The notes beneath the pieces are model-generated. The model was not told where the DNA came from, made no database searches, and saw only the letters and a program-made list of their open reading frames with translations. Below are positions 60,500-64,000 of a DNA stretch of 64,000 nucleotides, in pieces; the stretch's first letter is position 1; the number at the start of each line of letters is the position of its first letter. This DNA comes from Mycobacterium sp. (GTDB lineage: Bacteria; Actinomycetota; Actinomycetes; Mycobacteriales; Mycobacteriaceae): positions 1 to 64,000 of the forward strand of contig JAGQTV010000072.1 in the NCBI GenBank assembly GCA_020438845.1, read 5' to 3'. A program made the translations under genes and the position numbers.

Positions 60500-61174
60500 A
60501 TGAAGAAGACCACCAGCCGCGCTGCGGCAGCAGCCGGGAGCCTCGCCGTCGCCGCTGCCGTCGCCGTAGGTTGCTCTCAAACCGAGGATGCGACCAAGGA
60601 CCTGACCTCCAGCGCGGTCAGCGCGGGCTCCTCGGCCGCCAGCGCGATCGGCAGCGCAGCCAGCAGTGCGGCAAGCGCCGCGGGCAGCGCAGCCAGCAGT
60701 GCGGCAAGCGCGGCGGGCAGTGCAGCCAGCAGTGCGGCAAGTGTCGCCTCCGGAGCCGCGTCCTCGGCGCTCAACGGTGCGCCGACCACCCTCAACGTGC
60801 CAGGCCTCGGTGAGGTTGCGATGGACGGACCCACCGCCGAGGCCTACCGCAGGCTAGGCGGCGAGTCCGTGCTCGGCTCCCCGACCGCCCAGGCCCAAAA
60901 GGTGGGCGAGGGAACCGTGCAGCCGTTCACCAACGGAACCATCTTCTCCTCGCCGGCCACCGGGGCGCACGTCGTCCAGGGTGAGATCCTCACGGCCTAC
61001 CAGGCTCAGGGCGGTCCGGAGGGCAGGCTGGGGTGGCCTACCGCGGACGAGACCGAAACCGGCGGCGGCCCTGCACTGGCCAATGGCGGCTGGGTCTGCG
61101 AGTTCCAGCACGGCACCATCACCTGGCTCAACGATGGCAACGGCAACTTCAACGGGACCACCACAACGAAGTGA
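60500..61174 (+). CDS. LGFP-repeat lipoprotein
   Basis: 224 aa. Signal peptide with lipobox AVAVGC (Cys about 25), then a Gly/Ser/Ala-only spacer from three 33-bp repeats, then a globular domain with LGFP-type units (GGESVLGSPTAQAQ, RLGWPTADETET) that bind cell-wall glycans, and a Cys near the end. LGFP repeats tether proteins to the mycobacterial wall. ATG 60500 behind AGGGAGAA. Likely surface-anchored structural lipoprotein. Confidence 0.8.
   Translation: MKKTTSRAAAAAGSLAVAAAVAVGCSQTEDATKDLTSSAVSAGSSAASAIGSAASSAASAAGSAASSAASAAGSAASSAASVASGAASSALNGAPTTLNVPGLGEVAMDGPTAEAYRRLGGESVLGSPTAQAQKVGEGTVQPFTNGTIFSSPATGAHVVQGEILTAYQAQGGPEGRLGWPTADETETGGGPALANGGWVCEFQHGTITWLNDGNGNFNGTTTTK
60650..60748 (+). 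repeat. 33-bp tandem repeat in the lipoprotein spacer
   Basis: Three 33-bp units (60650-60682, 60683-60715, 60716-60748) encoding GSAASSAASAA-type spacers, with a few third-unit changes. Confidence 0.85.
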
Positions 61175-61619: not shown

Positions 61620-61670
61620 TATGCTCCTGTTCGCGCAGGAGGTCAGAACGTGGGTTGGCGTGTCACAACC

Positions 61671-62804
61671 TCATGAACCCGACTGATCTGCTGAGCCGGC
61701 GTTCTCGAATCCGAACCACTTCTGTTTGATCAAGTCGTATGTACCGTCCTCCCGGACGGACAACAGCCCCTCGTCGAATCGCCTCCTCCCCTCGCTTCCG
61801 TTAGGGAAGGCGACCCCATAGTCCTCCGCTTCGAAGATCGTCCCGACGATCTGGGCGATGCCGGCACCCTCGTGGGCAGCGTAGAACCGCAAGACTGGGG
61901 AGTCGAAAACCACCGCGTCAAGATCGCCCTTCTTCAAGGTGGCGTAGCAGTCGTCGATCGCCGCGACGCCCTGGGCCTCGACTCCGATCGAATTCAGGTA
62001 TTCCGCCGGTGCAGTGTTCGCCACCGTGCACACCCGCTTGCCCAGCAGATCAGCCGGCGAATTGATTTGTGCAGCGAATTTCGCGACCGTCATGTTTGCA
62101 GTCAGCGTCGCGGTGTAGAAGGCCACGAAGATGAGCCCCACAAAAGCCCAAAGAGTGGCCAGGCCCCTGGTCAGCGGGTGCCGTGGGATGTCATCAGGTT
62201 GCCCGGCGAGCATGCCAAGACTCCATCCGAACGCGCGGAAGACCCCCGCGAAATACGACTTCGGAACCATCGGGTGCTCATGGCGGCGTTCAGAGAGCCA
62301 GATGATGTGGGCCGGAAGCACCGAGACCAACAGGCCCGCCGCCAGCCAGATGGCCATCATCTTGGAGAACACCAGGTTGAGGAAATCCCGCAGGCCTGGT
62401 GTTGACTGCTCGAGCTTGCTGGTGGGGACCATGATCTGCAGACCCGAGTTGAGGATGGGCTGGGAGAAGTCGTAATCCTTGGTGCGATCGGCGGTGATCG
62501 AGATGGCAGTGGCGGCGGCGTCAACCCGTCGGTCGGAGACCGCCTTGAGTTGCTCGGCGACGTTGGCGACGTCGACGTAGGAGAGAGTCCAGTCCTCGCG
62601 CTTGGCGATCGCCTCAAGCAGGTCGATGGTGAAGCCTGACTTAATCGCGCCCTGGGTCATCACGAACGGCTCCAGGTCGTGCGTGGCGACGGTGACAACG
62701 CGCGGGGTCGGCACGGCGGTCGCCTGAGAGGCGATGACCGGAAGCCCGCCGAGAAGTGCCACCAACAGTGTGGCTCCGATCGCGGCGCGCAAACGTGCGC
62801 CCAC
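61671..62804 (-). CDS. Candidate prokaryotic ionotropic glutamate receptor-type channel
   Basis: 377 aa with the iGluR layout: signal peptide (1-30), ligand lobe S1 (about 35-140) with the ligand-binding Arg in ISITADRTKDYDFSQP, membrane helix (about 149-170), re-entrant pore loop (about 185-203, FGWSLGMLAGQ), helix M3 ending FYTATLTANMTV (about 214-240, compare the eukaryotic SYTANLAAF lock), then lobe S2 with INSPADLLGK and an acidic ligand residue (VVFDSPVLRFY). Unlike cyanobacterial GluR0 there is no TVGYG potassium filter. Not an ordinary ABC binding protein, because the lobes are split by the channel. GTG or ATG start at 62804; ligand likely an amino acid. Confidence 0.78.
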   Translation of the reverse strand: MGARLRAAIGATLLVALLGGLPVIASQATAVPTPRVVTVATHDLEPFVMTQGAIKSGFTIDLLEAIAKREDWTLSYVDVANVAEQLKAVSDRRVDAAATAISITADRTKDYDFSQPILNSGLQIMVPTSKLEQSTPGLRDFLNLVFSKMMAIWLAAGLLVSVLPAHIIWLSERRHEHPMVPKSYFAGVFRAFGWSLGMLAGQPDDIPRHPLTRGLATLWAFVGLIFVAFYTATLTANMTVAKFAAQINSPADLLGKRVCTVANTAPAEYLNSIGVEAQGVAAIDDCYATLKKGDLDAVVFDSPVLRFYAAHEGAGIAQIVGTIFEAEDYGVAFPNGSEGRRRFDEGLLSVREDGTYDLIKQKWFGFENAGSADQSGS

Positions 62805-62909
62805 CTGTCCCCGCCTCCCGTTCTGACCTCGGTTCAGCAGTCAGGATAGACGCGGGGTTCAGCGACCACGCGAGGGCGCTGTGCAAGCAGGTGTGGGCGG
62901 AGACTCTGC

Positions 62910-63293
62910 TCAGCCCCGGTCTTCCTCCGCGTGCCGACGCTCCTGGGAGATGAGCTCGGTGACGTGCCGGCGATCCAGCCCGGCCCGCTCCCCGGCGTGG
63001 CGCACGTTGAGCCAGGTGAGTTGGACTGCGTGCCGGACCGCCAGTTCGAGATGTTGCCCGGCGTGCCATGCGGCGACCGCCGCTCGCCGCGGCACCATCG
63101 AATCGGCGGCCCGCTCATGATCGACGACGTGCTTGTCGGCCAGACGCGCCCGCTGGTCGCGATGCCGCGCGTACACGCCTTCGTGTGCGGCCAGGTGCCT
63201 GCTGTATAGCGCTGCGTGCTCATCGACGTGGCGGTGCTCGATCGCCGCGTGCTCCGAGACGTGCCCCGATGCTTCTGTTCCCTCATTGGCCAT
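62910..63293 (-). CDS. Histidine-rich helical protein, unknown
   Basis: 127 aa with about 20 His spaced every 4-8 residues along what look like long amphipathic helices: SEHAAIEHRHVDEHAALYSRH, then DKHVVDHERAADS and RRHVTELISQERRHAEE. Could bind metal or heme, or form a coiled coil. ATG 63293 has AAGAGG at a good distance; ATG 63302 is too close to it. Same strand as the channel gene, 105 bp upstream. No family recognised. Confidence 0.5.
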   Translation of the reverse strand: MANEGTEASGHVSEHAAIEHRHVDEHAALYSRHLAAHEGVYARHRDQRARLADKHVVDHERAADSMVPRRAAVAAWHAGQHLELAVRHAVQLTWLNVRHAGERAGLDRRHVTELISQERRHAEEDRG

Positions 63294-63302
63294 GACGGTC
63301 AT

Positions 63303-63546
63303 ACCTCTTCCCGAGTTGTCGACCTGCACTCTCACGGGCTCCGTATCGCGATCAGCAGATCTTTGACACACTGAAAATTTACCCCCGGATTGAACGCCGG
63401 TGGGCCTTACCGCGGAATACCTCGATGGGCCATCCACTGCACCAAAAGCTGTTCCGGAACCGGTTTGACCAGCCCTGCCGGGTTAGAATGCCAGGGCCGT
63501 CACTTCCTCTGGTGGGTGTCCGGCGACCCGGTGAGAGGGGCGGATC
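63303..63546. other. Intergenic region, 244 bp
   Basis: Divergent promoter space. A GGAAC element and a GTTTG/GGTTA pair occur near 63450-63485, but spacing does not match known SigE/H or SigF promoters. GAGAGGGG before 63547 is the ribosome site of the next gene. Confidence 0.4.
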
Positions 63547-64000
63547 GTGCTGCTCAAGACGAGGCACGTCGCGATCGCCGCCGCAGGGCTGTTCCTCGCT
63601 TTCGCTGCCTGGCTGCTCTCAGCCTCATCGCAGGCAGACACCGTCGCGCTGGTCGACGACGTCGCTCTGGCCGTACTGGTCGTTCCCGCCGTGATTTTCG
63701 CCGTCGGCGCGGCGCGAACGGCCCAGGGCCGGTCAAGGGCCGCATGGGTGGCGCTCGCCATTGGGTTGGGTGGGTGGTTCGTCGGCGAGGTGCTCTGGAC
63801 CTACTACGAGATCGTCCTGGACCAGCCGCCGTTCCCGTCGCCGGCGGATGCGGGATTCCTGGTTTTCCCTGTTGGGGCCTGCGCGGCGCTGCTGCTCTTT
63901 CCCGATGACTACAGCCACTATTCCGTGGGCCGCGTCTTGCTCGACGGTCTGATCGTGGCAGGTTCGCTGTTCCTCGTGAGCTGGGTGGTGGTCCTCAGCC
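63547..64000 (+). CDS. Membrane protein, N-terminal part (runs off window)
   Basis: First 151 codons of a gene extending past the right edge. About five helices so far (VAIAAAGLFLAFAAWLLSAS; ALAVLVVPAVIFAVGAARTA; WVALAIGLGGWFVGEVLWTYYE), with a VLWTYYEIVL-x-PPFPSPADAGFLVF segment that I associate with the membrane sensor part of GGDEF/EAL proteins. GTG 63547 behind GAGAGGGG. The C-terminal domain is not visible, so the assignment is tentative. Confidence 0.6.
   Translation, partial: MLLKTRHVAIAAAGLFLAFAAWLLSASSQADTVALVDDVALAVLVVPAVIFAVGAARTAQGRSRAAWVALAIGLGGWFVGEVLWTYYEIVLDQPPFPSPADAGFLVFPVGACAALLLFPDDYSHYSVGRVLLDGLIVAGSLFLVSWVVVLS

What the first reader, a model, noticed from the sequence alone, without database searches (positions are those of the whole stretch)
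61671..62804. Glutamate-receptor-type channel with a eukaryote-like M3 motif and no potassium filter
A single 377-aa protein has the split ligand-binding lobe - helix - pore loop - helix - lobe order of ionotropic glutamate receptors. The helix after the pore ends FYTATLTANMTV, which aligns position for position with the eukaryotic SYTANLAAFLTV gate, and the loop before it (SLG...QPDDIPRH) resembles the AMPA receptor pore. Cyanobacterial GluR0 instead has TVGYG. A mycobacterial ligand-gated channel with non-potassium selectivity would be unusual and possibly close to the ancestral state.
Basis: partly seen in the sequence, partly recalled or inferred. Interest (0 to 1): 0.8.

Follow-up and report, generated by a model that had tools for sequence, protein, structure and literature searches.

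The report
Mycobacterial glutamate-receptor-like ion channel gene
This bacterial gene encodes a small relative of the brain's glutamate receptor channels whose pore lacks the usual potassium filter; such bacterial channels had been predicted before, but here they form a varied family within one genus, some in multi-gene sets, and what they conduct is still untested as far as we found.

Summary
Signal segment, S1, M1, re-entrant loop, M3 and S2 follow each other; Pfam's Lig_chan cut-off is passed; a mycobacterial profile aligns end to end with GluA2/GluN1 (hhalign 99.8%). The amino-acid-binding Arg and Asp are kept, dN/dS is about 0.17, and there is no TVGYG. It is a prokaryotic ionotropic glutamate receptor of the non-potassium type that Ger et al. 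(2010) called Group 2. A near-ancestral position is not supported: mycobacterial copies form one clade, best sister a cyanobacterial copy, next to TVGYG-bearing receptors; AU tests leave the deep order open. The filter loop counts 12 residues against 13 in GluA2 and 14 in GluN1 and K+-type rows. At least 29 of 248 sampled genomes of the genus carry the family. New, as far as my searches reach: tandem sets of three and four genes, an acidic and a basic pore class, a copy without loop, and, in the window alone among the loci compared, the gene inverted between 12-bp repeats that occur nowhere else in that genome. Structure prediction could not be run. Gating, ligand and selectivity are inferred.

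The parts
61671..62804 (-). ionotropic-glutamate-receptor-like ORF, 377 aa, GTG start, stop included
   Evidence: profile of nine mycobacterial proteins
62715..62804 (-). signal peptide-like hydrophobic N-terminus (residues 1-30)
   Evidence: hydropathy scan; no cleavage site predicted
62421..62699 (-). S1 half of the ligand-binding domain (residues 36-128)
   Evidence: 2pyy alignment; Lig_chan-Glu_bd
62484..62486 (-). Arg107, alpha-carboxylate-binding Arg position; R in 41 of 41 members
   Evidence: role from Ger et al. 2010
62289..62375 (-). M1 helix (about residues 144-172)
62178..62258 (-). re-entrant pore helix and loop (residues 183-209), core W194-SLGMLAGQPDDIP-R208
   Evidence: re-entry inferred by alignment, no model
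62085..62174 (-). M3 helix (residues 211-240) ending in the gate motif FYTATLTANMTV (229-240)
61704..62069 (-). S2 half of the ligand-binding domain (residues 246-367)
61902..61904 (-). Asp301, alpha-amino-binding Asp position; D in 39 of 41 members (1 Ala, 1 truncated)
   Evidence: role from Ger et al. 2010
61639..61650 (+). left arm of a perfect 12-bp inverted repeat (GAGGTCAGAACG) beside the inverted gene
62819..62830 (-). right arm of the same inverted repeat; the only other exact copy in the genome
61231..61566 (+). small secreted Cys-containing protein; found beside the receptor gene in 7 of 8 related loci
   Evidence: relatives in 74 of 248 genomes, many without receptor
60500..61174 (+). 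LGFP-repeat protein, conserved neighbour (7 of 8 related loci)

Best explanation
The gene encodes one subunit of a ligand-gated ion channel of the prokaryotic ionotropic glutamate receptor family, non-potassium type (Group 2 of Ger et al. 2010). Shown by sequence: a two-lobed amino-acid-binding domain split by M1, a loop and M3, with the alpha-carboxylate Arg and alpha-amino Asp in place, under purifying selection, and without TVGYG. Inferred: the signal segment puts both lobes outside the membrane, so the loop enters from the cytoplasm; four subunits form the pore; an alpha-amino acid outside the membrane closes the lobes and pulls the M3 bundle open; cations pass without strong potassium selectivity, drawn by Asp204/Asp205 at the cytoplasmic mouth. 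The distal side-chain pocket differs within the window's own sub-clade (T264-A265 here, T-E or T-N in its nearest kin, T-T in 35 of 41), so the agonist need not be glutamate. Membership is close to certain; the functional chain is probable, not shown.
For: Pfam Lig_chan, SBP_bac_3 and Lig_chan-Glu_bd over their cut-offs, no ABC permease family. Best solved relative 2pyy, 'Ionotropic glutamate receptor bacterial homologue', E 6.7e-43, then glutamine-binding proteins, then GluA1/GluN2B about 1e-17. The membrane piece alone hits AMPA receptors first. hhalign of nine mycobacterial proteins against GluA2+GluN1: 99.8%, 301 aligned columns through lobe, membrane part and lobe. Arg107 41 of 41, Asp301 39 of 41, TVGYG 0 of 41. 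Ion_trans_2 passes its cut-off in 3 of 3 TVGYG-type proteins scanned and is not listed for the window protein. dN/dS 0.166-0.178 against three orthologues. Loop length 12 in 24 of 24 mycobacterial rows counted (the loopless row left out) and in the cyanobacterial row.
Against: No structure model could be made, so tetramer and pore are untested. No current is reported for a non-potassium bacterial receptor in the passages I read. One of 41 members (G032) keeps lobes, M1 and M3 but has lost the loop, so not every member need conduct. The cyanobacterial sister row has Pro at the Asp301 position, so the ligand pocket is not kept throughout the non-potassium group. In the window the gene is inverted against its usual neighbours, so its expression in this strain is uncertain. 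The 12-residue loop has no counterpart of known selectivity among the rows aligned.
Confidence: 0.74

Rival explanations
1. It is a sensor without a conducting pore: the receptor fold is kept for ligand binding and the membrane part only anchors or signals.
For: One relative has lost the loop but keeps both lobes, M1, M3 and the M3 motif (9 of 12 with GluA2). The loop of the mycobacterial and cyanobacterial rows is shorter than in any other row of the alignment.
Against: The loop of the window protein is more constrained than the whole protein against its orthologues (pN 0.09-0.14 against 0.152-0.176), and 40 of 41 members keep a loop.
Confidence: 0.13
2. It is still potassium-selective, by a filter that does not look like TVGYG.
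For: After the cyanobacterial row, the nearest relatives in the trees carry TVGYG.
Against: Two residues fewer than the TVGYG rows and no Gly-Tyr-Gly-like pattern; no Ion_trans_2 match listed up to E = 1.
Confidence: 0.06
3. It is a gene taken from a eukaryote, or a late relic of the eukaryotic receptor's direct ancestor.
For: M3 and the loop ends resemble AMPA receptors; AU tests do not reject a clade of eukaryotic and mycobacterial rows (p 0.182) or one with the cyanobacterial row added (p 0.168).
Against: No M4, no amino-terminal domain; best solved match is the bacterial 2pyy; in both trees the two eukaryotic rows are split from all bacterial rows (100/99).
Confidence: 0.04
4. It is an ABC binding protein/permease fusion.
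For: Lobes match glutamine-binding proteins, though far under the curated cut-offs of those families (GlnH model 129.8 bits, cut-off 303).
Against: No ABC permease family match; the membrane part sits inside the binding domain, not after it; no ABC ATPase or permease among nine neighbouring ORFs scanned.
Confidence: 0.01

Closest known systems
Group 2 prokaryotic ionotropic glutamate receptors (Ger et al. 2010, PMC2950845); that PDB 2pyy is the Nostoc punctiforme member of this group is recalled, one search prints only 'Ionotropic glutamate receptor bacterial homologue'
   Same: S1-M1-loop-M3-S2 order, no K+ filter, Arg and Asp in place; best PDB match 2pyy, E 6.7e-43; the one cyanobacterial row available has the same 12-residue loop, G-Q-x-x-x-x-P-R
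   Different: Their ten listed members are, by their text, of cyanobacteria and proteobacteria; the mycobacterial rows are a clade of their own (99/99), with acidic and basic pore classes and tandem sets
GluR0 of Synechocystis (Group 1)
   Same: two membrane helices, split lobes, no amino-terminal domain; both ends outside shown for GluR0 (abstract and passages of PMC13099474)
   Different: GluR0 has a K+ filter; the window protein has a loop two residues shorter and no TVGYG. GluR0 itself was not aligned; six TVGYG-type actinobacterial rows stood in
AMPA receptor GluA2
   Same: loop start SLG, end PR, M3 motif 7 of 12
   Different: the window protein has no amino-terminal domain and no M4; its loop is one residue shorter
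NMDA receptor GluN1
   Same: co-linear core in the two-row profile with GluA2
   Different: GluN1's loop counts 14 residues like the TVGYG rows, the window's 12

Membership tests
Ionotropic glutamate receptor superfamily | ligand-binding lobes S1/S2 split by M1-loop-M3 | tested here: met
   by sequence
Ionotropic glutamate receptor superfamily | ligand-gated current through a tetramer | not testable with these tools
Ger Group 2 (prokaryotic, non-K+) | two membrane helices around a loop with no recognised K+ filter | tested here: met
Ger Group 2 (prokaryotic, non-K+) | Arg in S1 and Asp in S2 conserved | tested here: met
   R107, D301
Ger Group 2 (prokaryotic, non-K+) | clusters with the listed Group 2 sequences in a tree | tested here: inconclusive
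GluR0-type (Group 1, K+) | TVGYG filter / Ion_trans_2 match | tested here: not met
   TVGYG in 0 of 41 members; no Ion_trans_2 for the window protein
Eukaryotic iGluR | M4 helix after S2 and amino-terminal domain | tested here: not met
   protein ends 10 residues after S2; signal segment leads straight into S1
Eukaryotic iGluR | SYTANLAAF M3 motif | tested here: inconclusive
   7 of 12 positions of SYTANLAAFLTV
ABC binding-protein/permease fusion | ABC permease domain | tested here: not met

The most novel reading that the evidence does not exclude
Mycobacteria have evolved a private set of amino-acid-gated, non-potassium channels with NMDA-receptor-like subunit mixing: three or four diverged, adjacent and partly overlapping paralogues form hetero-tetramers, each subunit with its own ligand pocket, and a charge-reversed pore class (no acid, Lys/Arg in the loop of 18 of 19 copies) passes anions or blocks divalents, as R-edited AMPA pores do (recalled). 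In the window species the single gene can be flipped by inversion between 12-bp repeats.
Probability: 0.15. Interest if true: 0.85.

Novelty: new member of a known kind. Interest (0 to 1): 0.5.

Why it matters
Whether the K+-selective or the non-selective receptor came first is an open question about the origin of synaptic receptors, and the best-studied bacterial receptor, GluR0, has the K+ filter. A genus with many non-K+ receptors, two pore charge classes, tandem subunit sets and a loopless variant gives natural contrasts for testing selectivity, subunit mixing and physiological role. For this single gene the value is as a member of that set; proteins of its kind were predicted in 2010, so the surprise is moderate.

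Tried and rejected
Structure prediction: the first call and every retry met a full queue (18 calls), so there is no model and no fold search. Viral contigs: 51 stretches matched patterns, none encodes a relative. Phages: one partial match, 22% of the query. Genome contigs: one relative, L031, in a Mycobacterium sp. MAG (pattern-based, close relatives only).

Neighbourhood as a clue to the ligand: an amine oxidase, a protein that weakly matches carboxynorspermidine synthase (175.8 bits, cut-off 800) and an amino-acid permease-like protein (85.6 bits, cut-off 556.8) lie near, which suggested amines. Rejected as evidence: the amine oxidase family is found in 68 of 78 genomes of the genus at E 1e-80, the dehydrogenase in 10 of 78, and 8 of those 10 have no over-cut-off receptor. 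The small secreted neighbour is no marker either: 74 of 248 genomes hold a relative.

Weak Lig_chan matches: of 15 below-cut-off loci looked at (L030, L055-L068), 14 had a printed ORF and all 14 are TVGYG channels without lobes; L066 had none printed. Only two of these (L030, L061) are among the 19 weak rows; a third weak row, G025, turned out to be a true receptor cut off by a contig end (L091); the other 16 were not read. So 29 of 248 is a lower bound. L079 (over the cut-off, G795) did not match the family model at E 1e-5.

Ancestral state: tried with two trees and three AU tests; unresolved. GluR0 itself and plant receptors were not in the trees.

Full report
What is there. Windows of 19 residues over the hydropathy threshold lie only at 3-32, 141-172 and 210-240. 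Pfam lists SBP_bac_3 (81 bits), Lig_chan (52.1; cut-off 30.8), Lig_chan-Glu_bd (34; cut-off 30) and a sub-threshold NMT1 match, and no K+-channel or ABC-permease family up to E = 1. Among solved chains the best match is 2pyy, 'Ionotropic glutamate receptor bacterial homologue' (E 6.7e-43), followed by glutamine-binding proteins and then by GluA1 and GluN2B at about 1e-17. A profile of nine mycobacterial proteins aligns with GluA2+GluN1 over 301 columns, through lobe, membrane part and lobe, with probability 99.8% and 25% identity.

Real and constrained. Against its nearest orthologues (L040, L039, L031; 71-75% identity) dN/dS is 0.166-0.178, and in residues 190-210 pN is 0.09-0.14 against pS 0.63-0.83 (simple Nei-Gojobori counts, synonymous changes not far from saturation).

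Distribution. The window's genome has one such gene. In the genus 29 of 248 genomes have a match over the Lig_chan cut-off, 37 matches in all; 17 more genomes have only weaker matches (46 of 248 at E 1e-3). Of 14 weak ORFs read, mostly from other genera of the order, all are ordinary TVGYG channels, but one weak match in the genus, G025, is a true receptor cut by a contig end (L091), so 29 is a lower bound. In the order 6 of 298 genomes are over the cut-off, all six in the window's genus. In the phylum 8 of 296 are: the window's own, six that encode TVGYG-type receptors (L073-L078, read), and one that does not match the family model (L079). So among over-cut-off matches of these samples the non-potassium type is seen only in the window's genus; the Lig_chan cut-off would miss such divergent forms as the Agrobacterium protein (26.5 bits). 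That the genus is Mycobacterium is inferred from L031, a 'Mycobacterium sp.' MAG contig with a 70%-identical protein and shared gene order. Among plasmids 100 records match, 20 of them over at least 80% of the query, all 100 under 60% identical: Agrobacterium, Rhizobium, Paracoccus, Salmonella and others, and one cyanobacterium, Kovacikia.

The pore. I examined 41 mycobacterial copies: all 37 over-cut-off matches, three more, and L031; G025's cut copy was not among them. TVGYG occurs in 0 of 41; Arg107 is kept in 41, Asp301 in 39 (one Ala, one truncated copy). From the aromatic position before the filter to the Pro position after it, the loop counts 12 residues in 24 of 24 mycobacterial rows of the tree set (the loopless row left out) and in the Kovacikia row, 13 in GluA2, 14 in GluN1 and in 6 of 6 TVGYG rows, 14-15 in 7 proteobacterial rows. 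HMMER and MAFFT place the gap differently, so at the Q/R site the window protein has either Gly201 or nothing. The 41 copies fall into two pore classes, 22 without and 19 with the sequence SLVG before the filter. In the seven positions that follow, 20 of the 22 have an acid and 2 a Lys/Arg (one copy has neither because the loop is lost); of the 19 none has an acid and 18 have Lys/Arg. The window protein (GQPDDIP) is of the acidic class. All 20 copies with Cys259 also have Cys286, against 3 of the other 21 (counted by eye), which suggests a disulphide in S2.

M3 motif. Identity to SYTANLAAFLTV is 7 of 12 in the window protein, 6-9 (mean 7.68) in 25 mycobacterial rows, 6 in Kovacikia, 3-6 (mean 4.83) in six TVGYG rows, 2-4 in four alphaproteobacterial rows, 2-7 in three gammaproteobacterial rows (the Vibrio row equals the window's 7). 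The resemblance is real and on average stronger than in the K+ type, but it is shared by the whole mycobacterial family.

Tree. 40 rows, 332 columns: the 24 mycobacterial rows are one side of a branch (99/99), Kovacikia joins them (91/94), five of six TVGYG rows come next (87/85), and the two eukaryotic rows are split from all bacterial rows (100/99); the root is only a midpoint. Without the loop columns the order is the same (mycobacterial rows 91/98, Kovacikia 92/91). AU tests reject none of: TVGYG rows as one clade (p 0.105), eukaryotes+mycobacteria+Kovacikia (0.168), eukaryotes+mycobacteria (0.182). Two long branches (GluN1, Kovacikia) weaken all this. The claim 'close to the ancestral state' is neither shown nor excluded; the best trees speak against it.

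Ligand. The Arg and Asp that hold the alpha-carboxylate and alpha-amino groups (Ger et al.) are in place; the Kovacikia row has Pro at the Asp position. Through 2pyy's A-G-S-T the residues for the distal carboxylate (recalled from GluA2 S654/T655) correspond to T264-A265 here, T-E in L039/L040, T-N in L031 and T-T in 35 of 41; hhalign places this stretch one residue differently. An alpha-amino acid is likely; glutamate is not assured.

Neighbourhood and inversion. In eight related loci (L031, L032, L034, L038, L039, L040, L049, L091) the receptor gene or genes lie beyond an alpha/beta hydrolase that faces the other way, an LGFP-repeat protein (not detected in L031) and a small secreted protein (not detected in L038), and read in the direction of the last two; a ninth (L036) has the receptor 5.6 kb from the hydrolase in the same relative direction, without the two small genes. 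Four loci with a close amine oxidase but no receptor there (L092-L095, from G009, G018, G043, G053) keep amine oxidase and hydrolase and show neither LGFP nor small protein at that place (tblastn, E 1e-8); G018 has a basic-class receptor elsewhere, and all four genomes have a relative of the small protein elsewhere. Only in the window is the receptor gene turned round. It is flanked, 20 and 14 bases outside the ORF, by a perfect 12-bp inverted repeat whose sequence occurs exactly twice in the 4.53-Mb genome and in none of the other loci held. In the window, with one mismatch allowed, the same two sites are found; 5 of 100 shuffles reach two matches, a test that ignores position and orientation. 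Two readings: recombination between the repeats (perhaps a switch), or an inversion by staggered breaks that left the repeat as a scar. Reads would decide.

Tandem sets. G106 has four receptor genes in a row (L034; likely starts 6276, 7402, 8514, 9629), the fourth overlapping the stop of the third as ATGA; G003 has three in a row (L032), the third overlapping the stop of the second likewise, plus two on another contig, one of them interrupted. These are 2 of the 29 genomes. Copies of the two genomes pair up for the first gene (100/100) and for G003e/G106c (100/99). This is what co-assembling subunits would look like; it is not proof of it.

Literature. Ger et al. 2010 (PMC2950845; parts 1-3 of 4 of the text read) found 22 prokaryotic receptors with this topology, 12 with a K+ filter and 10 without, and called the latter closer to eukaryotic receptors. 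Passages only were read of PMC6385376, PMC12226733, PMC3483616, PMC12551409 and PMC10574481; of PMC13099474 the outline, abstract and passages: GluR0 has both ends outside and acts in cell volume control under KCl stress. One passage of PMC6172269 lists the GO term 'ionotropic glutamate receptor activity' as over-represented among horizontally acquired genes of Mycobacterium, so the annotation has been seen before; I read no more of that paper. Apart from it, the listings showed no title or abstract start that treats a mycobacterial receptor of this kind; these listings are partial (for instance 15 of 1,725 papers), and subscription papers and preprints were not searched.

Verdict. A genuine bacterial ionotropic glutamate receptor by sequence, without K+ filter: a new member of a predicted kind. 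The interest lies in the family around it.

Noticed in passing
L034 6276-10729 (G106); L032 2550-5932 (G003): Four and three receptor genes in tandem, one junction in each overlapping as ATGA; possible hetero-tetramer operons.
   Followed up: partly
window 61639-61650 and 62819-62830: Perfect 12-bp inverted repeat, unique in the genome, flanking the receptor gene, which is inverted relative to eight related loci.
   Followed up: partly
L014-L028, L047, L052-L054 (19 of 41 copies): Basic-loop pore class (SLVG, then Lys/Arg in 18 of 19, no acids) within the same genus; loop charge reversed against the window's class.
   Followed up: partly
L074, L075, L076, L078 (other classes of the phylum): TVGYG-type receptors with a long extra N-terminal domain; in L074 Pfam calls it OpuAC (162.7 bits), the other three were compared only by eye. 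A possible bacterial parallel to the eukaryotic amino-terminal domain.
   Followed up: partly
L049 1694-2788 (G032): A receptor copy that has lost the pore loop but keeps both lobes, M1 and M3.
   Followed up: no
L070, L071 (plasmids CP048491.1, NZ_CP019190.1): Receptor-like genes on plasmids typed as conjugative, annotated 'transporter substrate-binding domain-containing protein', with a different, basic loop.
   Followed up: no
window 62910-63437 (-): ORF with His-rich repeats, no Pfam or NCBIfam match, just upstream of the receptor gene.
   Followed up: no
window 63547-64000 (+), continuing in L035 to 5910: Membrane protein with a GGDEF domain (122.3 bits) and an EAL-like part beside the receptor gene.
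   Followed up: no
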